From Spirosoma lacussanchae (GTDB taxonomy: Bacteria > Bacteroidota > Bacteroidia > Cytophagales > Spirosomataceae): DNA of 64,000 bases. Location: positions 669,639 through 733,638 of the forward strand of contig NZ_SWJG01000001.1 of the NCBI RefSeq assembly GCF_005870035.1, in the 5' to 3' direction. The notes under the pieces are model-generated. The model ran no database searches and was not told the DNA's origin. It saw only the letters and a program-made list of their open reading frames with translations. Of the stretch, positions 2,804 through 42,890 are shown in pieces (position 1 is the stretch's first letter; each line of letters starts with the position of its first letter). Position numbers and translations under genes: made by a program.

Positions 2804-4861
2804 TTACTGGCCGGGGTGATAGATGCGTTTGGCCGTGCGTAGTACCTCTTGCTTGTCCAGCGTCATTGGCTTGGTTTTTTGAGCCGCAAACAAGGCCATC
2901 TGGTCTGTGTAGTGCGGACTGTCGGGACGGCCCGACGCGCCGAAACAGTTAACGGTTTCGATCAGCGGCAGGCCCGTCCGGGGAAACCGCACCAGCGAAA
3001 TGTACGACTCGCCCTGGCTGCTCCGAACCTGGCCCTGCCGGTAGGGGATGGCGTATATGGAGGCCAGTACATCGGGTATTCCCCAGATCGGCAACTCGGT
3101 TTTGCCCCGAACGTGTTTCTGGTAGTCGCCCAGGGTAATGTCGGTCCGGCCGAAATGTTTCCGGAGGTAAGCCTGCACATGGCGCAGGCCGGCCGCGCAG
3201 TCGTCGGCCGTGAGTACCGTTTTTTCCGTTGTCTGTTTGCTGAGCTTATCCTGCCAGTAACGATAAAAAACCAGGAAGGCAGCCGCGCCCTGGCTGTTGA
3301 CGGTGGCCTGCCGGTTCCAGGTCCGGATGGTGTAGATCAGGTCGCGAATATCCGGATACGCATCGGGGTCCAGCTCGAAGAGGGCATTGGCGTCGGGTCC
3401 CTGGGCGTACGAGAGCCTTTTGGGGAGTTGCAGATCGTACTTTATGCGTTTGAAGTCGGCGTAGCTGAGCTTGTCATACTGGCTGATTAACTCGCCGAAC
3501 CGGATGCTGCGGTTCGTATTCCAGCGCTCATAGCCCATAGTCGGGTCAAACGCATCGGGGTCGAGATTATCGGCCGGCGCGGTAGCGTTAAAAGGGGTGT
3601 TGTTCATGTTGAAGAGGTAGCCGCCGGGTGGGTTCAGGTACTGCGGAAAGTCAGCCAGCGGCCGGAAGCGGGTCCAGAGGGTGCGTGAGGTATTGCCGGG
3701 CAAGGTGCCGCTCCAGTCGTAGTCCGGGTTTCGGTAAGGAATCTTGCCGTTGCTGACGTAATAGATCGTATCGGCATCGGCGTAAACGATGTTGAAGCCC
3801 GGAATCGCCGTCATGGTAAGCGCCTGCCGGAACTCGGAAAACGAACGGGCTTTGTTCATCCGGTACCATTGCTGCAGACCCCGCAATTCCTGATTGGCAC
3901 CGGTCCGGATGGCAAACCAGCCCCGTTTGGTTTTGATGGTAGCGCCGTACCGACTCCAGTAAGCTTTCCGGTTGATGGCTACGGGAATGCCTTTGACCCG
4001 CAGGCGAACCCGCTTCTCCTCCAGCGGCAGCCATTGCCCGTCGAAGAGATACTGGTTAGGATGGGCTTTGTCGGTCTGGAGCTGGTAAATGTCGATTTTG
4101 TCCTGGTAGTTTACGGTATGGGCCCAGCCAAGGTGCTCGTTGACCCCGTGGAAAATCGTTGCTCCGCCCGGAAATAAGCCTCCCAAGATGTTCCAGCCCT
4201 GCTCGCTGCACAAATGGGCTTCGTACCAGGCCACGGGGCCTTCGAGCGGCTGGTGGGAGTTGATAGCCAGCATGGTCTGGCCTTCGGTGGTTTTGTTTCG
4301 GTGAACAGCAATGGCGTTGGAGCCGGTATTCTTCATGAAGTCGACCAGCGGTACCTGATTGCCGTAAATGCGCTGCAGCGCCCGGTCTACGCCCGAAATG
4401 ACCGACAGCGATAAGACCGATACCTTCAGGTAATCGCTCAGCGTGACCGGAAATGACCCGCGAACCAGCACCTCGGCCGGATGCGCCCGGGCGTAATCAT
4501 TCAGGCCCTGCAGGTAGCCCGTAAGTACCGCCCTGAAGTCGGGATCGAGTGCCGTTTCGCCCCGTTCTTTCACCAGTTCAGGAGCGTGAAGCAACTCGAC
4601 CACGTAATCGGCCGTGGCCCCCTGCTTGCCCAGATGCCGCCCCAGCATGCCTTTGGCAGGGAGTACCAGCAGCTGGATGGTCTTGAAATCATCTTCCGCA
4701 TGAGCCCAGGCCAGCCCATAAGCTACTTCAGGATCGGTCTGGGCAAAAATGTGCGGTACGCCATACGCGTCGCGGGCAATGGTTACGCGGGCAGGATCGA
4801 TCTGAGCAAACAGGGCAATGGAGGTACTGAAACAGATCAGGAAAAGGGCAGGCGTTTTCAT
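2804..4861 (-). CDS. Penicillin acylase family protein (secreted Ntn-hydrolase)
   Basis: A 685-residue protein with an N-terminal signal peptide ending near Gln20. The order follows the penicillin amidase family: the alpha-chain motif VTIARDAYGVPHIFA at about residue 26, ALAWAH-like GLAWAHAEDDF near 49-60, then the autoprocessing site NTGSNAIAV, where Ser181 would become the N-terminal nucleophile of the beta chain. Next comes LAINSHQPL, another conserved beta-chain element. Family enzymes cleave amide bonds of acylated substrates (beta-lactams, acyl-homoserine lactones or other N-acyl compounds) in the periplasm. The substrate here is unknown. Its upstream region, 4862-5277, holds an inverted copy of the 11-bp-periodic repeats and could be controlled through them. 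Length is usual for the family. Confidence 0.88.
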   Translation of the reverse strand: MKTPALFLICFSTSIALFAQIDPARVTIARDAYGVPHIFAQTDPEVAYGLAWAHAEDDFKTIQLLVLPAKGMLGRHLGKQGATADYVVELLHAPELVKERGETALDPDFRAVLTGYLQGLNDYARAHPAEVLVRGSFPVTLSDYLKVSVLSLSVISGVDRALQRIYGNQVPLVDFMKNTGSNAIAVHRNKTTEGQTMLAINSHQPLEGPVAWYEAHLCSEQGWNILGGLFPGGATIFHGVNEHLGWAHTVNYQDKIDIYQLQTDKAHPNQYLFDGQWLPLEEKRVRLRVKGIPVAINRKAYWSRYGATIKTKRGWFAIRTGANQELRGLQQWYRMNKARSFSEFRQALTMTAIPGFNIVYADADTIYYVSNGKIPYRNPDYDWSGTLPGNTSRTLWTRFRPLADFPQYLNPPGGYLFNMNNTPFNATAPADNLDPDAFDPTMGYERWNTNRSIRFGELISQYDKLSYADFKRIKYDLQLPKRLSYAQGPDANALFELDPDAYPDIRDLIYTIRTWNRQATVNSQGAAAFLVFYRYWQDKLSKQTTEKTVLTADDCAAGLRHVQAYLRKHFGRTDITLGDYQKHVRGKTELPIWGIPDVLASIYAIPYRQGQVRSSQGESYISLVRFPRTGLPLIETVNCFGASGRPDSPHYTDQMALFAAQKTKPMTLDKQEVLRTAKRIYHPGQ

Positions 4862-4964
4862 GGAGGAGGGGTTGGTACCGCTAAAGATAAAGAATAGCTG
4901 TCAGCCCTCAGGGAGCACATCGTGGCTCAGGTGACTGCCCAATGCAGGCGAGCGTAGGTCTGTT

Positions 4965-5019
4965 TTACCCCAATGTTAAGCCTGTTTGACTAATTTGTTA
5001 ACATTGGGGTAACATTGGA
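4965..5019. promoter_or_regulatory. Repeat cluster 1: inverted and direct TAACATTGG sites
   Basis: The sequence TTACCCCAATGTTAA (4965-4979) is the exact reverse complement of TTAACATTGGGGTAA (4998-5012), with an 18-nt spacer. On the right side two direct TAACATTGG copies begin at 4999 and 5010, 11 bp apart. An 11-bp spacing of direct half-sites is typical of OmpR/PhoB-type response-regulator sites; this role is inferred. The cluster lies between divergent genes (acylase, minus; small secreted protein, plus). Confidence 0.6.
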
Positions 5020-5171
5020 GGACTGGTCGACTAAAAAACAGAAGCCGACTGATAGGCGTAAAACACCTTTTAGGGGCGTATGTGGGCCTCTAATTACGAA
5101 AACAGCTTTTATTTGCCTGTCCATGTAAGGATAAACTTGTTGACCACTGAAAATTTTTATTCATATTTTGA

Positions 5172-5211
5172 TAACATTGGGTTAATATTTGAGTAATATT
5201 GACATAACATT
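5172..5211 (+). promoter_or_regulatory. Repeat cluster 2: four TAAYATT half-sites at exact 11-bp spacing
   Basis: TAACATT, TAATATT, TAATATT and TAACATT begin at 5172, 5183, 5194 and 5205, so each is exactly one helical turn (11 bp) after the last. They lie about 65 bp before the start of the small secreted protein at 5278. The pattern resembles Pho-box-like tandem binding of a winged-helix response regulator; the regulator is not identified. Confidence 0.65.
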
Positions 5212-5277
5212 AGTCCTTACGACTCGGTAGAGGGATTTGGGCGACTGGGCATTGTTCATCTATAAAATAACGAAGTC

Positions 5278-5625
5278 ATGAAAAAGTCTCTTTTTCTTCT
5301 TACGCTGGTAGGCTTCCTGGCGACGCAAGCCTACGCTACGCCGACAAAAACCCGCAAAACCAAAGCTCCTAAAGTCACGATGGAGCAGCAGTTAGCGAAG
5401 TACATTTCTTATCCCGACGCGCTGAGACCAAGCCAGCGGCCGGGTGTTGTGGTGATTCAATTCCGGGTCAATGCCGACAACGAGCTGTGTCAGCTTGAGG
5501 TATTCAGCCAGAATGAGCAGATAAATAATAGTCTTGTGAAGCAGCTGACCGGTAAGAAGCTGGCAGGCTACGGTAGCGATGCCGCCGAGCTGCATACCGT
5601 TCGTCTGCGCTTCCAGCCAGAATAA
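5278..5625 (+). CDS. Small secreted protein, TonB-C-terminal-like
   Basis: A 115-residue protein with a clear signal peptide (MKKSLFLLTLVGFLATQAYA) and a basic linker (TKTRKTKAPK). The remaining part runs from YPDALRPSQRPGVVVIQFRV to VRLRFQPE. This beta-alpha-beta layout, YP-x-A followed by a G-x-V-x-V-x-F-x-V strand, is reminiscent of the TonB C-terminal fold used as a periplasmic or secreted domain in many Bacteroidota proteins. There is no transmembrane anchor beyond the signal, so it is not a working TonB. Function is unknown. It is preceded by the 11-bp-periodic repeats and followed by a hairpin terminator, so it is probably a single-gene regulated unit. Confidence 0.65.
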   Translation: MKKSLFLLTLVGFLATQAYATPTKTRKTKAPKVTMEQQLAKYISYPDALRPSQRPGVVVIQFRVNADNELCQLEVFSQNEQINNSLVKQLTGKKLAGYGSDAAELHTVRLRFQPE

Positions 5626-5646
5626 CAGCGTTACGCGCTGGTGAAT

Positions 5647-5714
5647 ACGGGTAGAATCAGTGCCACCGCAGGCCGTACAGGCCGCGCTAGGGCTCGTGAT
5701 TCTACCCGTTTTTT
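5647..5714 (+). terminator. Hairpin terminator after the small secreted protein
   Basis: Perfect 13-bp arms (ACGGGTAGAATCA at 5647-5659 and its complement at 5697-5709) with a long 37-nt loop are followed by a T run at 5709-5713. Confidence 0.75.
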
Positions 5715-7101: not shown

Positions 7102-8337
7102 TTACAGTTTCCACTGAACAACCCAGCCGGGTTTAACGACCTTAGGGCAGGGAATACCGGCGAGCCCGGTGCTGGGGTTGATGGCTGTCAGCACCAGCGG
7201 AATAGGTTGCCTGGTGGCGGGTGAAATGGCTTTGGTTACCCGCAGGAATAAATTGCCCCTCGCATCAATATCATCAACGACCGCATAGAGCAAGTCGCCC
7301 GCTTTCAGTTCGTCTCCGTCGACGGTGATATCATCCAATAGGGAAAAGGCCCAGCTCTGGCCTATTTTCCGCTGCCCGGCCCGAACCAGCTTCGCCGACA
7401 CATCGCCGAGAAATACGGGTGTGGCAGCAGGCTTGTCTTTCAGTAACTGGGCCAGCACACTATCCATTACCAGGGCTTCACTGCGACTGGGCGGGGCTAT
7501 GTCCGATGTTTCGATGGGGGTGCCTACCGGTTCGGGGTCACTATCCCGTAGCCAGCCCATGCGCCGGGCTTGCTCACGTTCGGCGTCGTAGGGGTTACCG
7601 GCCGAAGCCAGCAGTAGCCCCTGGTTACCGAGTCCGTAGGCCGGGTTGGTAAACAGCTCTTTCATGGCCAGGATTCGGTACAGATAGTAACCCGTTTCGG
7701 CATTCATGGTCATCGAGTAGTAGTCGCGATGACCCACGCGGGTAATCTTGCGCTCAACCATACCGACGCCCCCGTTGTAGGCGGCAGCGACCAGCGTCCA
7801 CGACCCCAGTTTCCGGTATAGAAATTTCAGGTATTTACAGGCTGCTTCGGTCGACTTACGCAGGTCGGTACGGTCATCGTTGCCCGGGTCGATGCGCAGT
7901 CCCATGTCCAGCGCCGTCTGGTCCATAAACTGCCAGTACCCAACCGCTCCGGCCGACGATACTGCGTTGGCCTGCCAGGCACTCTCGATCAACGGCAGGT
8001 ACTTGAAATCATTCGGGATGCTGTGCTTTTTCAAAATTGGCTCAATAACCGCAAAGAAGGGGGCCGAGCGGGCTTTGAGGGCGCTTAGATGCCGGGCATA
8101 CCCCGAGCTACCGGCCAGGGCAATGGCCAGTTTGGCAGACACATCCGCCTGCTGAGTAGGTACCATTTCCCCGCAGAAGTGCGGCCGAACCAGACCCAGA
8201 GCCGGGCGGGGCTGCATAAGAGCCGTTCGGGGCGTACTTCCCTTTTTGGTAACCGCCTTCTTCTGGGCAACGGCCGCCGAAAGCGACAGCACAACAAGGA
8301 AAAAGACCGGAAAGATACGTTGTGTTGCTGGCGTCAA
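7102..8337 (-). CDS. Lytic transglycosylase (SLT domain), paralogue 1 of 3
   Basis: A 411-residue protein with a signal peptide (FPVFFLVVLSLSAAVAQ). After a short linker it has an RPHFCGEMVP motif shared by all three paralogues. The SLT domain follows: PLIESAW, with the catalytic Glu, then GAVGYWQFM and VAAAYNGG, as in MltD-type enzymes that cleave the MurNAc-GlcNAc bond of peptidoglycan to anhydro-muropeptides. The C-terminal 100 residues have no LysM repeat. They form a beta-rich domain (SFSLLDD-like segment, then AGDLLYAVVDDID, ending in a GIPCP element) that resembles the C-terminal domain of Bacteroidota conjugation protein TraM; this resemblance is my inference. It is the last gene of the tandem set. 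Confidence 0.88.
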   Translation of the reverse strand: MTPATQRIFPVFFLVVLSLSAAVAQKKAVTKKGSTPRTALMQPRPALGLVRPHFCGEMVPTQQADVSAKLAIALAGSSGYARHLSALKARSAPFFAVIEPILKKHSIPNDFKYLPLIESAWQANAVSSAGAVGYWQFMDQTALDMGLRIDPGNDDRTDLRKSTEAACKYLKFLYRKLGSWTLVAAAYNGGVGMVERKITRVGHRDYYSMTMNAETGYYLYRILAMKELFTNPAYGLGNQGLLLASAGNPYDAEREQARRMGWLRDSDPEPVGTPIETSDIAPPSRSEALVMDSVLAQLLKDKPAATPVFLGDVSAKLVRAGQRKIGQSWAFSLLDDITVDGDELKAGDLLYAVVDDIDARGNLFLRVTKAISPATRQPIPLVLTAINPSTGLAGIPCPKVVKPGWVVQWKL

Positions 8338-34063: not shown

Positions 34064-36193
34064 TTATATGGGCAGCACTTCGCTTTCGTAGACGTGTAAA
34101 GTATGGTTAATGAGCCGATAAACCCGGTTTGCCGTAGTTGCTAGTTGTGGCTTGTGGGTAATGAGTAAAATGGCGAGCTGCGGGCGTAAATTGTCCAGCA
34201 GATTCATCACAAATTGCTCGGTGTGCTGGTCCATTGCGGATGTAGGCTCATCGAGCAGAAGAAATTGCGGGTTGCGGTACAAGGCTCGGGCCAGTGCGAC
34301 TAGCTGGCGTTGCCCGCCCGACAGGTTTACGCCATCTTCGCCAAGGCGGGTAAAATAACCCTGTGGAAATTGCTCGAAGTAGGCTGCAAAGCCATAGGTT
34401 CGGCAAAAATCAACAATATCATCGGCTTCGCCGATGGTATCTCCGAGGCAGATGTTATCCAGCAGGGTGCCGCTAAACAGCTTAATATGTTGTGGCACTA
34501 CACCCAGTCCATGCCGCCATGTTGGGGTGTCGATGCGTTCCCAATCGGTGTCGTTTACGCTTATCCGTCCCGTTTCTGGCTTGTAAAATCGCTGAATGAG
34601 TTGCAGGAGCGTACTTTTCCCACTGCCGCTTTCGCCTAATAAAGCCACCTGTTCACCTCTGTGGATGGTCAATGACACGCGATCTAAAAGCGTGGGTCGG
34701 CCCGGGAACCGGAACGATACGTCATGTAGCGTTACTGAGCTAAAGGTAAAATCGGCTTGTGGTATGGCTGCCGGGTGCTCGGGGTCAAGCTGCGCATACT
34801 CGTACATCCGCTCGAAGGCTACGTTGGCTTCCTGCAGCTGGATATTCGTTAGGGCCAGACTGGCAACGGCGGGTAGAATGGTGCCGGTCAGTGTCAGGAT
34901 GGCCATCATCTCACCCAGTTGCAGGCTTTTTTGCACCACCAGTAGCGATGTAATAGCCATCAGGCCAACAATCAGCAACGCACCGGTAACTTCTGCCAGC
35001 AGCGAGAAACGCAAACCTACCAGCCCCAGTGAGTAGGCTTTTTTCTGAAAGAAGCTGTAAACGGAAGTAGTTATCTCCTGAAAGAACGGCTCCCGATTGC
35101 TGGTTTTAATGACATCGATTCCCTGAATGGTATCGACATAATTGCTTTCTGTGTGGGCCGAAGCAGCCATCACATCGCGTTGACCGTCGAGAATTGGTTT
35201 GTGAAAAAACCAGGCTAGCCCACCATACAGGGGTATACTCACCAAACTCAGCAGGCCAATCCAGGCCGAGTAGGTGAACAGATACCCTGCCGACACCAGC
35301 AGGACCAGCGCGTTGATAACTACCACGCCCGTGATCTGATTGATGCTGCGCTGAATGCGGCTGGTATCGTTCAGGCGGGCTACCAGCTCGCCGGTTTTGC
35401 GGCTATCGAAAAACGACTTAGGCAGATAGAGCAACGCTCCGTAAAACCGGTTGACCATGCGGTTGTTAAAGTCCTGGCTTTGGCGGTTCAGCAGGAAACC
35501 ACGCAGATACCCAACAACGGCCCGCGCCACCAGCAGAAACGCCAACAGGGCCAGTCCCAGTAAAAGCCGCTTTGTGTCATGCCGGGGCAGGATTTCATCG
35601 ATCAGCTTTTGCGAGAAAATGGCGGTTGACAGGCCAAGCCCTGCGGTGACAATACCCAGCCCCGTGGCAATGGCCAGTAAGGGTATGTCGTCGCGAATTA
35701 ATCCGAGAAGCCACCGCCGTTTGGCGACCTTTTCGTCGGTTTGTTTGACGAACGATGCGTTGGGCGTCAGGGCCAGTAATATTCTGGAGGGCCAGATTGC
35801 CGTCAGCTCCTCGGTGGTGTAGTGCTCAATACCCCTTGCCGGGTCGCCGATACTGAAAATTCCAGCTATGTTATCCCAGCCGTAGCAGACCACGTAGTGC
35901 TGGAGCCTGTCATCTATCAATACGTTCAGAATAACGGGCCCGCTGACATCGGTTTTCAGGTTTTCGATGGAGTCGGCCTGTAGTCCTTCGCTTTCTAAAC
36001 CAAGTTGCTGCGCGGCCTGATGGAGTCCCAGTAAAGTGGTTCCCTGCGTATCGGTACCGCTGAGTTCGCGTAGTCGTTCGAGCCGGCTATGCCCACCGTA
36101 GTACGCCATAACTGAAGCCAGACAAGCCACACCGCAGTCAGCCTGCCCCTGCTGGCGTATCAGGGTTCGTTCCAGGTAGTTTAACGGCTTCAT
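34064..36193 (-). CDS. Peptidase-containing ABC exporter (C39 bacteriocin-type)
   Basis: A 709-residue transporter that cuts leader peptides and exports the core. Residues 1-140: C39 cysteine peptidase, with GQADCGVACL (nucleophile Cys20), LQHYVVCYG (His99) and GDPARG (Asp117), so the triad is complete. Residues about 160-440: six-helix exporter domain. Residues about 470-705: ATPase with Walker A GESGSGKSTLL, signature LSGGQRQLVALARALY, and LLLDEPTSAMD. This build (PCAT) processes double-glycine leaders, in agreement with the two precursors at 38136 and 39202. It is the last gene of the minus-strand cassette, after the accessory genes. Confidence 0.94.
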   Translation of the reverse strand: MKPLNYLERTLIRQQGQADCGVACLASVMAYYGGHSRLERLRELSGTDTQGTTLLGLHQAAQQLGLESEGLQADSIENLKTDVSGPVILNVLIDDRLQHYVVCYGWDNIAGIFSIGDPARGIEHYTTEELTAIWPSRILLALTPNASFVKQTDEKVAKRRWLLGLIRDDIPLLAIATGLGIVTAGLGLSTAIFSQKLIDEILPRHDTKRLLLGLALLAFLLVARAVVGYLRGFLLNRQSQDFNNRMVNRFYGALLYLPKSFFDSRKTGELVARLNDTSRIQRSINQITGVVVINALVLLVSAGYLFTYSAWIGLLSLVSIPLYGGLAWFFHKPILDGQRDVMAASAHTESNYVDTIQGIDVIKTSNREPFFQEITTSVYSFFQKKAYSLGLVGLRFSLLAEVTGALLIVGLMAITSLLVVQKSLQLGEMMAILTLTGTILPAVASLALTNIQLQEANVAFERMYEYAQLDPEHPAAIPQADFTFSSVTLHDVSFRFPGRPTLLDRVSLTIHRGEQVALLGESGSGKSTLLQLIQRFYKPETGRISVNDTDWERIDTPTWRHGLGVVPQHIKLFSGTLLDNICLGDTIGEADDIVDFCRTYGFAAYFEQFPQGYFTRLGEDGVNLSGGQRQLVALARALYRNPQFLLLDEPTSAMDQHTEQFVMNLLDNLRPQLAILLITHKPQLATTANRVYRLINHTLHVYESEVLPI

Positions 36194-36194
36194 G

Positions 36195-36269
36195 TCAGCA
36201 CGAGGGTTTGGTCAATTGCTCAAATAGCAGGCAAAGCAGTAGCCAGAGAACTGATATAATCTGTTCCAT
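36195..36269 (-). CDS. Possible 24-residue membrane peptide
   Basis: An ATG at 36269 opens a 24-codon frame, MEQIISVLWLLLCLLFEQLT then KPSC, ending in a TGA two nucleotides before the exporter ATG. It is one hydrophobic helix. It lies exactly in the 116-bp gap between the thioredoxin-fold gene and the exporter, in the same direction. The reading frame is too short to judge by codon use, so it may be a real small membrane peptide or chance. Confidence 0.35.
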   Translation of the reverse strand: MEQIISVLWLLLCLLFEQLTKPSC

Positions 36270-36309
36270 AGTGGTGGGTAGTAAGAATTGTGATGGCTAC
36301 AGGCCGCTT

Positions 36310-36831
36310 TTATTTGGGTAAAGGGGCTGTATAGTTTGCTATGGCTGTTACGCTGGTTTCGCCCCGAAAGCGTTTGGCCAGCGACCCGTCGGCGTGATAG
36401 ATCAGTACGTCGGGAACAGACGTAAAGCCGAAGGTGTCGTAAGCTTTTTGTTGGGTTATGTGTGCTACGTGCAGATTACTGATTGTGTCAAGCTGGTGGG
36501 TTTGGGCAAAAGCGTTTAGGGCCGTCAACGGAGCCGCCGACAGTAGCCAGACGTCGGTATGGGCCAGTTGGTGGGCGTTCTGCCGTAGTTCATCCGCTTC
36601 ACGCTGACAATGGTCGCAGTCGGGGTCGAAATAAACCAGCACCAGCGGACGGCCCGTAGCCGCCAGCCGAATCGGCCCGCCCGACAGGGGCGTAACCGCA
36701 CAGGCGGGTAGTGTATGAATGCGCTCAGCTTCTTCGCGTTTGCGGCTTAGGGCGCTGGTGAATCCCCAACCGAAGTAGGTCATCAGACCCAGCACTAGTA
36801 GGGGTAAGGCCCATTTTGCGTAGCGGTTCAT
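36310..36831 (-). CDS. Membrane-anchored thioredoxin-fold protein (CDHC motif)
   Basis: A 173-residue protein with one N-terminal membrane helix (WALPLLVLGLMTYFGWGF) and a periplasmic thioredoxin-like domain. Its strand LVLVYFDPDCDHCQREADEL holds a CxxC active site, and FGFTSVPDVLIYHADG is the cis-Pro loop. It could form or reduce disulfides outside the inner membrane. Its start codon overlaps the stop of the preceding gene (ATGA), so the two are translationally coupled. Both precursor peptides of this cassette have exactly two Cys residues, so a role in their disulfide formation is a reasonable inference. Confidence 0.75.
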   Translation of the reverse strand: MNRYAKWALPLLVLGLMTYFGWGFTSALSRKREEAERIHTLPACAVTPLSGGPIRLAATGRPLVLVYFDPDCDHCQREADELRQNAHQLAHTDVWLLSAAPLTALNAFAQTHQLDTISNLHVAHITQQKAYDTFGFTSVPDVLIYHADGSLAKRFRGETSVTAIANYTAPLPK

Positions 36832-37502
36832 GACAGGCTAACGGTTAAGAACATGACGAACATTACCCACACGAGTAGCCCTGAGCCGTACGAAGCCGCT
36901 ACCATACCCAGCCCGCGCTGCCATGACCAGCCCACCACCTCCGCCACACCGTAGGCCAGCATCAGCCAGTAAGTCAACTCAAATAAATTGAGCAGCTGCA
37001 ACGGATAAAATAGGTACGGTTCAACGGAATGAACATCGAGCAGATTGAGCAGACTAAGCGGATAAAACACCTGCAAATCCTGTAAACTGTAGTCGGTTTG
37101 TACAAACAGGAACCATAGCAGCTTTATTAGAGCGGGTAATAGCAGCACCAACTCAGCCTGTATGGCTACCCGAAAAAAGGCTTTGTAGGCCCACCGATTC
37201 GTAGCGAAGTAATAACCAAGGCTCAGACAGGACGCGACGAGAGAAAACTTTACCAAGCAGTATAGGGGCAGCAAAATATACCCAAGCCAAGCCCATTTAT
37301 GGTTTTGCGAGATAGTCTTTTCAATTTGCTCATAAGTCATCTGCTCTGCCAAAGCATTAAAATATAACCCATCGGATATAAGCAGATGATTTACCGCAAC
37401 AGCTAGAAAAACACTGACAAGAGAGGTCGCCGTATATACAAACCAAATGTTACTTTCATGGGCAGACCGCTTACGCTGTACTGGATCTGTTAAGAAATTC
37501 AT
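36828..37502 (-). CDS. Multi-pass membrane protein of the bacteriocin-type cassette
   Basis: A 224-residue protein with about five membrane helices (for example SLVSVFLAVAVNHLLI, WLGYILLPLYCLVKFSLVAS, and the C-terminal LLVWVMFVMFLTVSL). The loop between helices 3 and 4 has a repeated YPLSLLNLL / YPLQLLNLF element. I recognise no family. It overlaps the CxxC gene by four bases (ATGA) and follows the secreted protein gene by 36 bp, so it belongs to the same operon. An exporter accessory or immunity role is possible but unproved. Confidence 0.65.
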   Translation of the reverse strand: MNFLTDPVQRKRSAHESNIWFVYTATSLVSVFLAVAVNHLLISDGLYFNALAEQMTYEQIEKTISQNHKWAWLGYILLPLYCLVKFSLVASCLSLGYYFATNRWAYKAFFRVAIQAELVLLLPALIKLLWFLFVQTDYSLQDLQVFYPLSLLNLLDVHSVEPYLFYPLQLLNLFELTYWLMLAYGVAEVVGWSWQRGLGMVAASYGSGLLVWVMFVMFLTVSLS

Positions 37503-37538
37503 CGATTTATTGTGGCAAAATCAGTGAACAATTACTGC

Positions 37539-38081
37539 CTAAGAATTACCCAGCAGATAAGTCAAGCCTAAGAGCCAATAAGAACCACTATCATTATCAA
37601 TTGCTACTTTCTGAGTAAGTAGATATAACATAATCCCTGCTAGAGACTTGTCTGCAGAGTTAGCTTCAATAGTTAATTCGAAGCTTCCACGCAGTGCTTT
37701 ACTAGCTTGGTAGCGGCCTCTTACCACTCTATCTGGTCCCGTGATGCGTAAATCACGGCCTGGCGGGTAACTTAGTCTGTAGCTTTTGCCCTGGAAGAAA
37801 ATTTTCCGACCTTTTAACAAACCAATTGAATCGCCTTTTACGTTGGCGATGACTAAATACTTCTTCTTGGCAGTCAAAAAGTACTGTAATCCACCTACGT
37901 CAATAGTTAGTCGACCATAATCTGTCGGATAAATACGTGCAAAATGTTCATTGCCATCATTAACCTGAATGGAACTATTACTGAATGCACTCGACAGAAT
38001 CATGTTACCTGTGTAATTTATTTGCTGGGACTTGCCCAGTAAAGAAATACACATTGTTACTACAACTAATAGGGCTTTCAT
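37539..38081 (-). CDS. Secreted protein of unknown function in the bacteriocin-type cassette
   Basis: A 180-residue protein with a signal peptide (KALLVVVTMCISLLGKS) and a beta-rich mature part: GRLTIDVGGLQYFLTAKKKY, then DSIGLLKGRKIFFQGKSYRL and the C-terminal hydrophobic segment SYWLLGLTYLLG. I do not recognise a family. It is the first gene after the hairpin that follows peptide A, in the same direction. The coding sequence is clearly more AT-rich than the 40-60 kb part of the window, a hint of transfer. Its role (accessory factor, adhesion or immunity) is not shown. Confidence 0.6.
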   Translation of the reverse strand: MKALLVVVTMCISLLGKSQQINYTGNMILSSAFSNSSIQVNDGNEHFARIYPTDYGRLTIDVGGLQYFLTAKKKYLVIANVKGDSIGLLKGRKIFFQGKSYRLSYPPGRDLRITGPDRVVRGRYQASKALRGSFELTIEANSADKSLAGIMLYLLTQKVAIDNDSGSYWLLGLTYLLGNS

Positions 38082-38102
38082 TTTGGTAGATAACGGATAG
38101 GA

Positions 38103-38131
38103 TTACCCCCGAAAATTATTTTCGGGGGTAA
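38103..38131 (-). terminator. Perfect hairpin between peptide A and the downstream operon
   Basis: Arms TTACCCCCGAAAAT (38103-38116) and its complement (38118-38131) with a 1-nt centre. It begins right behind the stop of peptide A. It can act as a partial terminator, giving more peptide mRNA than exporter mRNA, a common arrangement in bacteriocin loci. Confidence 0.7.
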
Positions 38132-38135
38132 ATAA

Positions 38136-38306
38136 CTAACAGTGCTTGTCAACCAGTACAACACCGCCGGCTATACCAGCAGCGGCAATAGGGGGGGCAA
38201 CGGCTTCAACTGCTCCAAGAACTATCAGACCAACTCCCAGTAAACATTTCCAGAAATTGGCACCACCTTGTGTGGCTATCATCTGTGCTTCAGTCAGCTT
38301 TTTCAT
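38136..38306 (-). CDS. Bacteriocin-like precursor peptide A with double-glycine leader
   Basis: A 56-residue frame translated by hand. Leader MKKLTEAQMIATQGG (15 residues) has Leu at -12, Met at -7 and the Gly-Gly at -2/-1 recognised by C39 peptidases. The predicted core has 41 residues, starts ANFWKCLLG and ends VVLVDKHC, and is rich in Ala, Val, Gly and Leu. It holds two Cys, at core positions 6 and 41, suited to one large disulfide ring. It lies upstream of an accessory operon and a C39 exporter with a complete triad. This fits a class II bacteriocin-type or signalling peptide; activity is untested. Gene length is below usual annotation limits. Confidence 0.75.
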   Translation of the reverse strand: MKKLTEAQMIATQGGANFWKCLLGVGLIVLGAVEAVAPPIAAAGIAGGVVLVDKHC

Positions 38307-38329
38307 GTTGAAAAATATAATACACGTTC

Positions 38330-38511
38330 CCTACTCTATTTAAGGCTTTTCGGTATCCACCTTTGTCGCGCGCTTGACGAGACAAAGGTGATATACGAAC
38401 AACCCCGGCGCATGAGCAAACTTGCTCTTTTCTTGTGAGTGAACTTACCTTTTTTAGGTGGGCAACTTTACCTATTACTTACCTATAACGTAGCTAGTCG
38501 GCCAGGAGTAG
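38330..38511. repeat. Duplicated upstream block, copy A (regulatory region of peptide A)
   Basis: About 180 bp that aligns without large gaps to 39433-39614. By eye there are about 20 differences, with only six in the first 100 bases next to the peptide gene. Inside are an inverted repeat ACCTTTGTC/GACAAAGGT (38360-38388 region), the palindrome GAGCAAACTTGCTC, and AGGTAA half-sites on the minus strand, two of them 11 bp apart (AGGTAAGTAATAGGTAA). These are probably the promoter and operator of the peptide. Confidence 0.75.
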
Positions 38512-38559
38512 CGTTACTTGACGGATCACAGGAGAATTGATTCCAGCCAGACTTGTAAG
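38494..38559 (-). pseudogene. 3' remnant of a second LuxR-type regulator gene
   Basis: The minus-strand frame upstream of copy A ends TLLLAD and stop (TAG at 38494-38496). The intact regulator at 39597 ends ETLLLLLAD and stop. Before it the remnant reads LAGINSPVIRQV, similar to the last HTH helix of LuxR proteins, until a stop at 38560. This is what remains of a regulator copy that moved along with the duplicated upstream block. Confidence 0.55.
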
Positions 38560-38907
38560 TCAACGCAAACAAAGACGGCCTAAGGATTTATGTGTAGATA
38601 TAAGTTTGCCACGCCAGCGATCACTGATAATGAGGTATTGATGGCCTACTTTCTAATATCAATAGTAGGTTGTGACGAAATAATCGGCTTATTAATTACC
38701 TGTTTTTCGATACAGTAATTGGCTTGCTTGTCAATTAATTTTTCTTCGAGTATAACTGCATCCACTACCTATTTTTTTTCTTGTTAATTATCGTGAAAAC
38801 GCTACCTCGTTGCCTGTTAGGATGCTTGCAAGGAGTTGTATCTGACTTCTGCTCGACAATGAAATTTTCAACAGAAATACATGTCAACGGGTGTAAGCCT
38901 TGAAAAT
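38560..38907. other. AT-rich region, no gene recognised
   Basis: Every ATG I could find on the minus strand leads to a stop within nine codons, so no further precursor peptide is visible. Oligo-T and oligo-A tracts are frequent. It may be decayed DNA from the duplicated regulator copy. Confidence 0.4.
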
Positions 38908-39132
38908 TCAGTTTGGATTATTCAGATTGGCGTTTCTCTGTTTCAAATCTATGAGCATGGCAATACCTGTAAGATTAGTGCCTATTCCTGTGCAAAGAGC
39001 ATATACTAACTCTTTATCTTTGAGATCGCTGTATAGTGCATATCCAAAGGTTAAGCCTGAGAATGTAAACGATGTGTACATCAACACCGTTTTAAATAAT
39101 TTCTTATTCATATTAATTTTGGTTGATGACAT
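38908..39132 (-). CDS. Small two-helix membrane protein, candidate immunity protein
   Basis: A 74-residue frame (or 67 from the Met at 39111) with a basic N-terminus (MNKKLFK) and two membrane helices (TVLMYTSFTFSGLTFGYALY and LVYALCTGIGTNLTGIAMLI), ending in a polar tail. It lies 69 bp after precursor peptide B in the same direction. Bacteriocin immunity proteins are often small, basic-start membrane proteins in exactly this place. No sequence family is recognised, so the immunity role rests on position and topology. A plus-strand frame covers the same DNA, but looks less like a protein. Confidence 0.5.
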   Translation of the reverse strand: MSSTKINMNKKLFKTVLMYTSFTFSGLTFGYALYSDLKDKELVYALCTGIGTNLTGIAMLIDLKQRNANLNNPN

Positions 39133-39201
39133 CTATTTTTCTATTGAATTTACTCAGTAGAAAAATAGATGTCAGTGTCAAAATAAAGTTACTGACTTTT
39201 A

Positions 39202-39408
39202 CTAAAATTTGTTAGTAAAACAGGACATTAAACCCACCGTTCCTGCTACATATCCTTGGCTAGCTACTAGGGTAGCTGCTAAGGGCGCTCCAACTCCAGT
39301 CATAGCAAGCCCTGCTACGCCAAGAGCAAATCCTGCTACTGCTACTGCACACCCAACTTTACCACTACCTTCAATAGTAGCCATATCAATGTCAGACAAC
39401 CGCTTCAT
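39202..39408 (-). CDS. Bacteriocin-like precursor peptide B with Gly-Ser type leader
   Basis: A 68-residue peptide from the ATG at 39408 (ATGs at 39414 and 39423 are also possible). Leader MKRLSDIDMATIEGS has Leu at -12, Met at -7, Ile at -4 and Gly-Ser at -2/-1, a known variant of the double-glycine site. The predicted core of 53 residues starts GKVGCAVAVAG and ends GLMSCFTNKF. It is Ala/Gly/Val-rich with two Cys, at core positions 5 and 48. The shape (hydrophobic, Gly-rich, two terminal Cys) resembles Blp-type class II bacteriocins. It has its own copy of the duplicated upstream block and follows the LuxR gene. Confidence 0.72.
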   Translation of the reverse strand: MKRLSDIDMATIEGSGKVGCAVAVAGFALGVAGLAMTGVGAPLAATLVASQGYVAGTVGLMSCFTNKF

Positions 39409-39432
39409 ATCCATGAAATACATGATGATTAA

Positions 39433-39614
39433 CCTACTCTCTTTCAGGCTTTTCGGCATCCGCCTTTGTCGCGCGCTTGACGAGACAAAAGTGATACACG
39501 AACAACCCCGGCGCATGAGCAAACTTGCTCTTTTTCTGTGGGTAAACTTACCTTTTTTAGATGGGCAATTTTGCTTATTACTTACCCGAAACTTACTTAG
39601 TCGGCCAACAGTAG
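39433..39614. repeat. Duplicated upstream block, copy B (regulatory region of peptide B)
   Basis: The second copy of the block at 38330-38511. Its far end runs into the last codons of the LuxR-type gene (stop at 39597), which shows the direction of the duplication. The palindrome GAGCAAACTTGCTC is identical in both copies. The second AGGTAA half-site of copy A is AAGCAA here, so the two promoters may differ in strength. Confidence 0.75.
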
Positions 39615-40229
39615 TAGCAGCGTTTCGCGGTGGGCCATTACCCAGCGGGTCAGGCTGCCGGGGCCACCCGATATACCCAGCTTCTGGCTTATATTTAGTT
39701 TATGGTTATTCACTGTTTTCTGGCTGAGGCACTCGGTGTCGGCAATTTGCGGTCCCGTTTGTCCCGATGATACACCGCGCAGTACCCGGCGTTCGGCAGG
39801 GGAGAGACTGTGCCAGCCCGGAAACGGCTCGTTGATGCTATAAGTAGCTGCTGTCTGGAGCAGGGCCGATTGGAAAAACCGCCCGGCTTTTAGCGTTACT
39901 AAACAGTCGGTGAGTTCGGGAACCGTACAAAGAACATCGAACTCCAGATTGTCCAGTAGTTTCCAGAGCGGTTTTGTCATCACCGAACTGGTTTCGAGAC
40001 AAACGATCAGCAGTGTTTCGGGACTGCCCGCCCGCAGGTCAGTAAACAGCGGAGCGTCCTGCAGGTAATCCTGGGTGATTAAGGCAAAGCGTGGCTGTTC
40101 GGTACTGACTCGTTGCCGAAACACAATCGCATTGGTTTGCGGAGTGCGCCAGAGCAACGCAGCCGCGTCCGAAGCGGCCGATATCTGTAGGGTTAACAAG
40201 CGCCGGGAACATAAAGCAATCAGGGACAT
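39597..40229 (-). CDS. LuxR-type transcriptional regulator of the peptide cassette
   Basis: A 210-residue protein. Residues about 1-135 resemble a degenerate receiver domain, with no clear phosphorylatable Asp pocket found. Residues about 143-200 are a LuxR-type HTH: LSPAERRVLRGVSSGQTGPQ, then IADTECLSQKTVNNHKLNI and SQKLGISG. The regulator is the first gene of the cassette on the minus strand, and precursor B follows after 170 bp. It probably controls the duplicated promoters, which is inferred. Missing receiver residues suggest it is not activated by a classical kinase. Confidence 0.78.
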   Translation of the reverse strand: MSLIALCSRRLLTLQISAASDAAALLWRTPQTNAIVFRQRVSTEQPRFALITQDYLQDAPLFTDLRAGSPETLLIVCLETSSVMTKPLWKLLDNLEFDVLCTVPELTDCLVTLKAGRFFQSALLQTAATYSINEPFPGWHSLSPAERRVLRGVSSGQTGPQIADTECLSQKTVNNHKLNISQKLGISGGPGSLTRWVMAHRETLLLLLAD

Positions 40230-41143: not shown

Positions 41144-41157
41144 TCAGTAAAAAGTGC

Positions 41158-41219
41158 TGAGCGATGAGTGCTGAGCGATGAGTGCTGTCAGTTGCTCATC
41201 GCTCAGCACTCATCGCTCA
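41158..41219. repeat. Inverted repeat with 25-bp perfect arms
   Basis: Arms 41158-41182 and 41195-41219 are exact complements, with a 12-nt loop. Each arm has a tandem inner repeat (TGAGCGATGAGTGC twice). It fills the gap between tsaB and the protease gene. The composition, an 8-mer family GAGCGATG/CATCGCTC, looks like a dispersed genomic repeat; it could also work as a terminator or mRNA stabiliser. Confidence 0.8.
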
Positions 41220-41222
41220 TCG

Positions 41223-42890
41223 TTATTTTGATTTGGTGCCTTTGAGGATGGCGGTGTAGCGACCCATGTCTTTGAAGACGTCGAGGGCGGCTTTCAGTTC
41301 GGGGTCGGTCGCAAAAGAGGCTTCCTTGATGCCATGCTGGAGGTAATAGTGACCCGCAATTTCCTGTTCGAGCAGCGTTTTAAGCTCGTTCTTGAACGTC
41401 ATCAGGTCGGCGTCTTTGCTGTGCGACACTTTGGTTTTCAGGGCTTTGAGCTGATCCTGAATCTGATCGAAGTATTTTTCTTTTTTGGCCGATGCTTCGA
41501 GCGTGCCGAGATCTTTCTCGACCTGGGTGGTATAATCATACTCTTTATCGGCTACCCATTTGGTAAAGTCGGCATACTCGGCATCGGTCAGGCGAAACTC
41601 GCGGGCCGGTTTGATAGTCGCATGTTCGCTCCGGTACTTGACCGCATAGTCGAAGATCAGCCCTTTGTTGGTCAGGCTCAATGCAATGGGGGTTGGTGTC
41701 TGAGCTTCTACGACCACATCGGGCAATACGCCACCGCCGTCGTACACAACCCGGCCAGCCTTGGTTTTGAACGCCGTTTTGAGCGAATCGGGCACTTTAC
41801 CAACGCTACCGTCGGGGTTGCGGTGGCTGTAGTCGATGGCCTGGATACAGCGCCCGCTCGGAATATAGTATTTGGCCGTGGTGATTTTCAGCTTGGTATT
41901 GAACGACAGCTCGCGGGTGGTTTGTACCAGCCCCTTGCCAAACGTCCGCTGGCCAACCAGTACGCCCCGGTCATAATCCTGAATAACGCCCGATACGATC
42001 TCGGCGGCCGACGCACTGCGGCTGTTGGTCAGTACGATGATGGGCATATCGAGGTCGAGGGGAGGGTTGAGGGCCGTGTAGGTTTTGTTCCACTCGGTTA
42101 CCTTGCCTTTGGTCGTTACGACCTCCGAATCTTTCGGAATAAAAATGTTCGAGATGTCGATGGCCATGTTCAACAGACCGCCGGGGTTTTCGCGGACGTC
42201 GAGAATCAGCTTTTTCATGCCTTTCCCTTTCAGCTCCTGAAACGCGGTTTTTACCTCGCGCGAAGCTGTGGCGGTGAAGTCTTTCAGGTCGATATAGCCC
42301 ACCTCGTCGTTGATCATGCCGTAGTACGGCACGTTGGTCATCTTCACCACATCGCGGGTAACGCTCACGTCGACGGGGTCTTTCTGGCCAAACCGGCGAA
42401 CTGTCAGTTTAACGGCCGTATTGTTCTGCCCCTTCAGCAGTTTGCCGGGGTCGGCATCTTTGCGGCTTTTGAGGTCGATCCCGTCGATCTTCACGATTTC
42501 GTCGCCGATCTGCAGCCCCGACTTTTCGGCCGGTGTACCTTCGTAGATCATCAGCACGATGCTTTTACCCTGCCGCTGGCCAACGAGCGCCCCAATGCCG
42601 TTGTAGCGGCCGGTTGTCATGGTCATGTAATCTTCAATTTCATCTTCGGCGAAGAAATTGGTATACGGGTCGAGGGCTTTCAGCATGGCATCGATGCTGG
42701 TCTTGACCATGCGGTTGGGATTCACCTCATCTACGTAATACAAATTCAGCTCTTTGAAGAGCGTAGCGTAGATGTCGAGGTTACGGGCAATCTCGAAGAA
42801 CCGGTCGTCGGTTTTGAACGAGAAGAACCCGATACCGCCTGCCACAAGGACCGAGGAGGCAAGGAGCGTAAAACGTTTGGGAAGGCGCAT
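41223..42890 (-). CDS. S41-family C-terminal processing protease
   Basis: A 555-residue periplasmic protease. It has an N-terminal hydrophobic anchor or signal (FTLLASSVLVAGGIGFFSF), a PDZ domain at residues about 85-170 (MIYEGTPAEKSGLQIGDEIV), and the S41 core: LILDVRENPGGLLNMAIDIS, then NSRSASAAEIVSG with the catalytic Ser and VGQRTFGKGLVQ with the catalytic Lys, followed by YYIPSGRCIQ. C-terminal residues about 420-555 are helical. Enzymes of this family trim C-termini of periplasmic proteins. It is flanked upstream by rnpA, and tsaB follows. Confidence 0.93.
   Translation of the reverse strand: MRLPKRFTLLASSVLVAGGIGFFSFKTDDRFFEIARNLDIYATLFKELNLYYVDEVNPNRMVKTSIDAMLKALDPYTNFFAEDEIEDYMTMTTGRYNGIGALVGQRQGKSIVLMIYEGTPAEKSGLQIGDEIVKIDGIDLKSRKDADPGKLLKGQNNTAVKLTVRRFGQKDPVDVSVTRDVVKMTNVPYYGMINDEVGYIDLKDFTATASREVKTAFQELKGKGMKKLILDVRENPGGLLNMAIDISNIFIPKDSEVVTTKGKVTEWNKTYTALNPPLDLDMPIIVLTNSRSASAAEIVSGVIQDYDRGVLVGQRTFGKGLVQTTRELSFNTKLKITTAKYYIPSGRCIQAIDYSHRNPDGSVGKVPDSLKTAFKTKAGRVVYDGGGVLPDVVVEAQTPTPIALSLTNKGLIFDYAVKYRSEHATIKPAREFRLTDAEYADFTKWVADKEYDYTTQVEKDLGTLEASAKKEKYFDQIQDQLKALKTKVSHSKDADLMTFKNELKTLLEQEIAGHYYLQHGIKEASFATDPELKAALDVFKDMGRYTAILKGTKSK

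What the first reader, a model, noticed from the sequence alone, without database searches (positions are those of the whole stretch)
34064..40229. A bacteriocin-type peptide secretion cassette with two precursors and a duplicated control region
In one minus-strand block lie a LuxR-type regulator, precursor peptide B, a two-helix membrane protein, and precursor peptide A. A secreted protein, a multi-pass membrane protein, a CxxC thioredoxin-fold protein, a tiny membrane frame and a C39-peptidase ABC exporter with Cys20, His99 and Asp117 follow. The link between leader peptides and C39 exporters is established knowledge. The particular combination, with a redox protein and a duplicated promoter and peptide unit, is not one I recognise as described in Cytophagales.
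Basis: partly seen in the sequence, partly recalled or inferred. Interest (0 to 1): 0.85.

Follow-up and report, generated by a model that had tools for sequence, protein, structure and literature searches.

The report
Spirosoma bacteriocin cassette with swappable toxins
A Spirosoma bacterium carries a compact gene cassette that very probably makes, cuts and exports small disulfide-bonded antibacterial peptides; the export machine is a known kind, but the toxin genes differ between species behind a repeated genetic switch that ends in a small RNA of unknown function.

Summary
The export half (five-helix membrane protein, CxxC thioredoxin-like protein, C39 ABC exporter) is not new: it is the bacteroidetocin chassis published in 2019 (PMC6671954), with all three genes together in 30 of 36 named loci. 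What I did not find described is the front end of the Spirosoma version. Each control unit has palindromes, a promoter-like box in the same register (30 nt from the third palindrome centre, 9 of 9 units), and the orphan Rfam RNA DUF805b, which occurs over its cut-off only twice in this genome, both here. Palindrome sequence changes with the LuxR recognition helix. Against a sister species, DNA identity stops at the 3' end of DUF805b and resumes inside the membrane-protein gene, so the toxin cargo differs in between. DUF805b shows strong covariation for a pseudoknot. The tiny frame is exactly 24 codons in 7 of 7 LuxR-type Spirosoma cassettes. Killing, immunity, disulfide formation and LuxR binding are inferred, not shown. 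Verdict: new variant of a known kind.

The parts
39597..40229 (-). LuxR/GerE-type regulator, 210 aa, recognition helix KTVNNHK
   Evidence: Pfam GerE 1.3e-10; 7-row alignment; in 8 of 36 Spirosoma genomes. DNA binding not tested.
39433..39614 (-). Control unit 1 (first copy of the 182-nt repeat): three palindrome-like sites centred near 39570, 39547 and 39524, box CACTTTTG at 39493-39486, then DUF805b
39431..39466 (-). DUF805b RNA, copy 1; pseudoknot 3 of 3 pairs (one G-U)
   Evidence: RF02914, 46.1 bits, gathering 35.6; pairs
39202..39408 (-). Precursor B, 68 aa, leader MKRLSDIDMATIEGS, core 53 aa with Cys 5 and 48
   Evidence: start chosen by leader length and by the distance from DUF805b; an in-frame ATG lies upstream
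39127..39174 (.). Inverted repeat, 21-nt arms, 95% complementary, between precursor B and the two-helix gene
   Evidence: role unknown
38908..39132 (-). Small two-helix protein, 74 aa (or 67 aa from ATG at 39111), candidate immunity protein of B
   Evidence: no family match; function inferred from position
38330..38511 (-). Control unit 2 (second copy): sites near 38468, 38444 and 38421, box CACCTTTG at 38390-38383, then DUF805b
38328..38363 (-). DUF805b RNA, copy 2; pseudoknot only 2 of 3 pairs
   Evidence: RF02914, 46.0 bits; pairs
38136..38306 (-). Precursor A, 56 aa, leader MKKLTEAQMIATQGG, core 41 aa with Cys 6 and 41
37539..38081 (-). Secreted protein of 180 aa, no relative in 35 other Spirosoma genomes; candidate immunity or accessory gene of A
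   Evidence: 1 of 36, its own; no family match
36828..37502 (-). Five-helix membrane protein, counterpart of the bacteroidetocin TM protein
   Evidence: model pLDDT 93.1, pTM 0.85; weak Yip1 match in 4 of 45 relatives
36310..36831 (-). Membrane-anchored thioredoxin-like protein, CDHC
   Evidence: AhpC-TSA 1.9e-06; Cys invariant in 14 of 14
36195..36269 (-). 24-residue membrane micro-ORF
   Evidence: same length, start and place in 7 of 7 LuxR-type Spirosoma cassettes; not found in 4 of 4 other chassis loci of that set or in 22 of 22 named loci scanned
34064..36193 (-). C39 peptidase ABC exporter, 709 aa, intact

Best explanation
It is a bacteroidetocin-type bacteriocin cassette with exchangeable cargo. 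The C39 exporter cuts the 15-residue GG or GS leaders from two hydrophobic, two-cysteine precursors and moves the cores out of the cytoplasm; the CDHC protein, helped by the five-helix membrane protein, closes one disulfide in each core. Each core travels with its own small neighbour gene, probably immunity. The LuxR-type protein binds palindromes ahead of each precursor and activates a promoter whose transcript carries DUF805b, a pseudoknotted 5' leader about 20 nt before the start codon. Shown here: gene order, catalytic residues, conservation, DUF805b, covariation of palindrome and helix, covariation of the pseudoknot, different cargo at a sharp boundary. Inferred: killing, disulfide, immunity, LuxR binding, transcription start, release through the outer membrane.
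For: All three chassis genes together in 30 of 36 named loci, thioredoxin-like gene in 33 of 36. The chassis matches the published bacteroidetocin four-gene region, where TM protein, oxidoreductase and peptide genes were needed for full activity. 40 of 51 GG-leader ORFs in 41 chassis loci have exactly two Cys. A small TM ORF follows the first precursor in 25 of 34 loci. Window against S. sordidisoli: identity ends at 39433 and resumes at 37396. Box and third site in the same register in 9 of 9 units. GYAA half-sites with KTVNNHK, GKGA with KTVENHK.
Against: No activity, expression or mass data. Neither precursor nor candidate immunity protein matches a curated family. Bacteroidetocin producers had no immunity gene. 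Precursor B ends its leader in GS and its core (53 aa) is longer than the 35-50 aa given for bacteroidetocins. No outer-membrane exit gene was seen in the block. Related exporters are interrupted in 4 of 17 fetched loci (own second copy L051, S. fluviale L041, L045, L046; mutation or assembly error). By symmetry score alone the third site is among the six best dyads in only 6 of 9 units. The two KTVENHK regulators are close relatives, so the helix change may be one event.
Confidence: 0.78

Rival explanations
1. The peptides are signals rather than toxins: exported, oxidised and sensed so that the LuxR regulator induces its regulon.
For: A dedicated regulator with its own operators; in G016 the regulator stands before a different, lipoprotein gene.
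Against: Precursors differ completely between species with 97% identical exporters while the regulator stays 96% identical; a signal should evolve with its receiver. No receptor or kinase seen in the block.
Confidence: 0.13
2. A and B are the two halves of one two-peptide bacteriocin and act only together.
For: Two precursors in tandem behind one control unit in L039 and L040; two-precursor loci also in L152, L170, L176.
Against: In the window each has its own control unit and neighbour gene; the sister cassette L036 has one precursor; most loci have one.
Confidence: 0.2
3. A decaying remnant without function.
For: Interrupted exporters in 4 of 17 fetched relatives, one of them the second copy in the same genome.
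Against: All window frames are open and catalytic residues kept; the micro-ORF stays open in 7 of 7.
Confidence: 0.05
4. DUF805b here is only an incidental leader, part of a generic strong promoter, with no link to antagonism or cargo exchange.
For: It precedes very different genes across the phylum: first ORFs behind 114 elements were 20 GG-type, 44 signal-peptide-like, 45 other, 5 none by crude rules, no background computed.
Against: Only two copies in this genome, both at precursors; over cut-off ahead of precursors also in L048, L049, L158 and L167 outside Spirosoma.
Confidence: 0.45

Closest known systems
Bacteroidetocins (proposed class IIf), Coyne et al. 2019, PMC6671954 (passages read, not the whole text)
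   Same: GG-type leader of 15 aa, short core with at least two Cys, neighbouring five-TM protein, thiol oxidoreductase and C39 ABC exporter
   Different: Two-Cys, more hydrophobic cores, one of 53 aa; two precursors; candidate immunity genes; dedicated LuxR regulator; DUF805b control units; a 24-residue micro-ORF. Sequence similarity to bacteroidetocins A and B could not be tested (sequences not in the held text)
Class IIa/IIb bacteriocins of Gram-positive bacteria (recalled)
   Same: Double-glycine leader, C39 exporter, small immunity gene next to the precursor
   Different: No YGNGV motif; host and membrane architecture differ; no family model matched the precursors
DUF805b RNA, RF02914
   Same: Both control units exceed the gathering score; short distance to the start codon
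   Different: Here ahead of bacteriocin precursors; a loop-tail pseudoknot is supported that the structure line does not show (Infernal drops pseudoknots, so the original drawing may have it; that paper was not held)

Membership tests
Bacteroidetocin-type locus | Leader of 15-16 aa with GG cleavage site | tested here: met
   A: 15 aa, GG; B: 15 aa from MKRL but GS instead of GG
Bacteroidetocin-type locus | Core of 35-50 aa with at least two Cys | tested here: inconclusive
   A 41 aa with 2 Cys; B 53 aa with 2 Cys, slightly long
Bacteroidetocin-type locus | Five-TM protein encoded nearby | tested here: met
   Five long hydrophobic helices in a confident model; relatives on chassis with four-Cys cargo. 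Direct homology to the published TM protein not tested, sequence not held
Bacteroidetocin-type locus | Thiol oxidoreductase encoded nearby (most regions) | tested here: met
   CDHC, AhpC-TSA match
Bacteroidetocin-type locus | C39 ABC exporter encoded nearby | tested here: met
Bacteroidetocin-type locus | Peptide sequence similarity to bacteroidetocins A/B | not testable with these tools
   Sequences are in figures and a supplement that were not readable
Bacteroidetocin-type locus | Killing of Bacteroidota | not testable with these tools
   needs a bench test
DUF805b RNA (RF02914) | Score at or above gathering cut-off with stem P1 | tested here: met
   46.1 and 46.0 bits against 35.6
DUF805b RNA (RF02914) | Cis-regulatory function | not testable with these tools
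   Rfam type Cis-reg; no expression data
LuxR/NarL-type regulator | GerE helix-turn-helix | tested here: met
LuxR/NarL-type regulator | Phosphorylatable receiver domain (response regulators) | tested here: inconclusive
   No receiver-domain match in Pfam; no invariant acidic residue where a phospho-Asp would be expected, judged by eye

The most novel reading that the evidence does not exclude
LuxR operators plus the DUF805b pseudoknot are a portable switch-and-dock module: it drives whatever toxin unit lies behind it and supplies the homology along which toxin units are swapped or duplicated; DUF805b, found across Bacteroidota ahead of many peptide or exported products, is a tiny sensor or stabiliser RNA that gates antagonism and secretome genes.
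Probability: 0.28. Interest if true: 0.82.

Novelty: new variant of a known kind. Interest (0 to 1): 0.6.

Why it matters
It extends bacteroidetocin-type loci to Spirosoma with two-cysteine cores and linked candidate immunity genes, and gives cores short enough to synthesize and test. It puts an orphan RNA motif into a concrete setting, with a supported pseudoknot, in a genome that has only two copies, so its function can be tested by simple genetics. It gives a case in which toxin cargo differs between sister species at a sharply defined boundary.

Tried and rejected
Fold relatives of the membrane protein: Foldseek against PDB gave 0 matches at E <= 0.001; hmmsearch against PDB sequences gave 0; Yip1 matched 4 of 45 relatives, best E 1.4e-4, kept only as a hint. 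DUF805b as a bacteriocin-only element: rejected. The tiny frame as chance: rejected because length and place are constant in 7 of 7 although 19 of 21 pairs differ by 6-14 amino acids. The alternative fold seen in single-sequence folding: not preferred, because stem P1 and the loop-tail pair each covary on their own. Known bacteriocin family models: none matched. A stop inside the membrane protein of the second chassis copy, which the 'stops inside' column suggested: dropped, because the frame is open and the TAA is its end. Paludibacter as a host of the chassis: dropped, because that MAG contig (L165) has the same precursor and identities as Flavobacterium frigoris (L166) and is probably misbinned.

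Rows dropped or limits: one search read 119 loci (L058 and L059, below cut-off, left out beforehand) and kept 114 distinct elements; re-parsed 6; one search used 106 of 114. One search missed window precursor B through its start-codon rule and counts near-duplicates (L042/L150, L165/L166). One search's classes are crude both ways (some signal peptides counted as GG, some likely precursors as other). One search used stricter filters and lists only part of its matches; and searched the genus only.
Full report
WHAT IS THERE. The window lies in a 6.33-Mb genome of the genus Spirosoma: same-genus genomes G009, G026 and G025 have contigs of the same lengths as named records of Spirosoma sordidisoli TY50 (L147), S. 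fluviale (L148) and a Spirosoma MAG (L149). On the minus strand, in order of transcription: a LuxR/GerE regulator (39597-40229), control unit 1, precursor B (39202-39408), a small two-helix protein (38908-39132), control unit 2, precursor A (38136-38306), a secreted protein (37539-38081), a five-helix membrane protein (36828-37502), a CDHC thioredoxin-like protein (36310-36831), a 24-residue membrane frame (36195-36269) and a C39 ABC exporter (34064-36193). The outer neighbours read as CoaX and TsaB (names recalled, from the ORFs); of the 20 stretches searched only S. sordidisoli has the cassette between the same neighbours.

THE EXPORT CHASSIS IS KNOWN. Bacteroidetocin regions hold a protein with five TM regions, a GG bacteriocin, a thiol oxidoreductase and a C39 ABC exporter; deletion of the TM, oxidoreductase or peptide gene attenuated activity, the four genes sufficed in E. 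coli, no immunity gene was found, and release through the outer membrane was left open (PMC6671954, passages read). The word Spirosoma does not occur in its held main text; its supplement was not readable. A scan of named genomes with an alignment of the membrane protein gave 36 loci: 33 also have the thioredoxin-like gene and 30 all three genes, in Spirosoma, other Cytophagales MAGs, Flavobacteriaceae and two Bacteroidales MAGs. In an even sample of the phylum the membrane protein occurs in 28 of 395 genomes. So two-Cys and four-Cys cargo use one kind of machine.

THE CARGO. In 41 chassis loci examined, 34 have a GG-leader ORF within 4.2 kb upstream of the membrane protein; of the 7 without, 6 have less than 2 kb of upstream sequence. 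Of 51 such ORFs 40 have exactly two Cys in the core, 4 one, 3 three, 3 none, 1 four; a small TM ORF follows the first precursor in 25 of 34 (near-duplicate loci included, window precursor B missed by the rule). Window cores have one Cys towards each end (A: 6 and 41 of 41; B: 5 and 48 of 53). The 180-aa secreted protein was found in 1 of 36 Spirosoma genomes, its own.

CARGO DIFFERS AT A SHARP BOUNDARY. Against S. sordidisoli (L036, exporter 97% identical) DNA identity is 94% from window 45000 to 39433 and 93% from 37396 to 31334; between these points only the second control unit aligns (38508-38330, 90%, to the same stretch of L036). Identity thus ends at the 3' end of DUF805b (39431) and resumes inside the membrane-protein gene, and a different precursor with different neighbour genes fills the slot. 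The two control units in the window are most simply explained as a duplicated copy of this boundary, one per toxin unit (inference). GC of the cargo stretch is 0.34-0.50 against 0.55 for the window.

THE SWITCH. In 9 of 9 control units from seven genomes a CAMYTTTG box, resembling the Bacteroidota -7 element (recalled), stands in the same register, 30 nt from the centre of the third site, which in all nine ends in TCATG; two further sites lie about 23 bp apart upstream in most units. By symmetry score alone the centre at 30 nt is among the six best dyads in 6 of 9 units, and another dyad scores higher or as high in several; the claim rests on register as well as symmetry. If transcription starts about 4 nt after the box, the third centre lies near -41.5, a classical activator position (inference). 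Half-sites are GYAA where the LuxR helix reads KTVNNHK (GYAA 2-8, GKGA 0-2 in seven units plus the G016 unit) and GKGA where it reads KTVENHK (GKGA 5-6, GYAA 0-1 in two units). The latter two regulators are close relatives, so this may be one event. The regulator is found in 8 of 36 Spirosoma genomes: the seven with this cassette form and G016. In G016 it stands, with degenerate palindromes, before its own DUF805b and a 315-aa Cys-rich lipoprotein, away from the G016 cassette.

DUF805b. Both units match RF02914 at 46.1 and 46.0 bits (gathering 35.6); these are the only matches over cut-off in the genome. Over cut-off it is in 18 of 36 Spirosoma genomes (25 of 36 at E <= 0.001), in 76 of 395 phylum genomes (118 at E <= 0.001) and in 0 of 14 control genomes. 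In chassis loci it is over cut-off in L036, L037, L038, L040, L041 (twice) and L043 and in L046, L048, L049, L158 and L167; L039 falls just short at 35.4 bits. L158 is Aquimarina and L167 Winogradskyella, so the link with precursors is not confined to Spirosoma; and one search also searched L042, L044, L045, L152, L163, L164 and L168 and found none over cut-off there. One L041 copy precedes a lipoprotein gene whose product ends in a core-like stretch (by eye). The first ATG lies most often 20-21 nt after the element (31 of 114). I find covariation for a pseudoknot: the loop triplet before GAAAA pairs with the triplet after GAGTA. The outer pair is Watson-Crick in 100 of 114 distinct elements, G-U in 6 and neither in 8; none of 10,000 shuffles reached this (mean 0.42, highest 0.57; shuffles ignore relatedness). 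Corrected mutual information ranks this pair second of all column pairs, between pairs of the known stem (106 elements). Changes at the other two pairs are also compensated (L075, L076, L191, L196). In the window, copy 1 forms 3 of 3 pairs and copy 2 only 2 of 3.

THE MICRO-ORF. Seven of seven LuxR-type Spirosoma cassettes keep a frame of exactly 24 codons beginning MEQ, with one hydrophobic stretch, between the thioredoxin-like gene and the exporter; 19 of 21 pairs differ by 6-14 amino acids, and nonsynonymous codon differences outnumber synonymous ones in most pairs, so conservation is of length, place and hydrophobicity rather than of sequence. It was not found in 4 other loci of that set or in 22 named loci scanned. 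Small subunits of membrane complexes such as CydX or AcrZ are the analogy (recalled).

NOT IN PRINT, AS FAR AS SEARCHED. 'DUF805b' 0 papers; 'RF02914' 1 paper, on machine classification of RNAs (listing); 'DUF805' with RNA-motif terms, 31 papers of which 20 were listed, none on this by title; Spirosoma with bacteriocin, 15 papers, none on such a cassette by title and start of abstract; a search with LuxR, bacteriocin and C39 terms, 1 unrelated paper. The original motif paper (recalled as NAR 2017) is not held.

VERDICT.

Noticed in passing
L041 reverse strand 7358-8074 (S. fluviale, G026): A 238-aa predicted lipoprotein behind its own palindromes and DUF805b ends in a Gly/Ala-rich, Cys-containing stretch that looks like a bacteriocin core.
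   Followed up: partly
L252 reverse strand 3332-5663 (G016:C1, about 57 kb): The same LuxR type stands before a control unit with DUF805b, a 315-aa Cys-rich lipoprotein and a 155-aa membrane protein, without the export chassis.
   Followed up: partly
G000:C2:1-14500 (L051): A second membrane-protein, thioredoxin-like, exporter set in the same genome; the exporter match falls into two pieces in different frames and no two-Cys GG precursor was found.
   Followed up: partly
L088, L099, L100, L116, L195, L196, L241: DUF805b elements also precede genes that look, by eye, like a rhodopsin (L099), DUF2589-like proteins, phage-tail-collar-like proteins and a muramidase.
   Followed up: no
window 39127-39174: A near-perfect 21-bp inverted repeat between precursor B and the two-helix gene, covering one possible start codon of the latter.
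   Followed up: no
window 41149-41228: A 34-nt, 88% inverted repeat between the TsaB-like and CtpA-like genes.
   Followed up: no
G000:C1:213092-215134, G000:C18:319070-321139, G000:C21:8448-8834: Three further C39 exporters in the genome with other surroundings; near the first is a short GG-leader ORF with one Cys.
   Followed up: no
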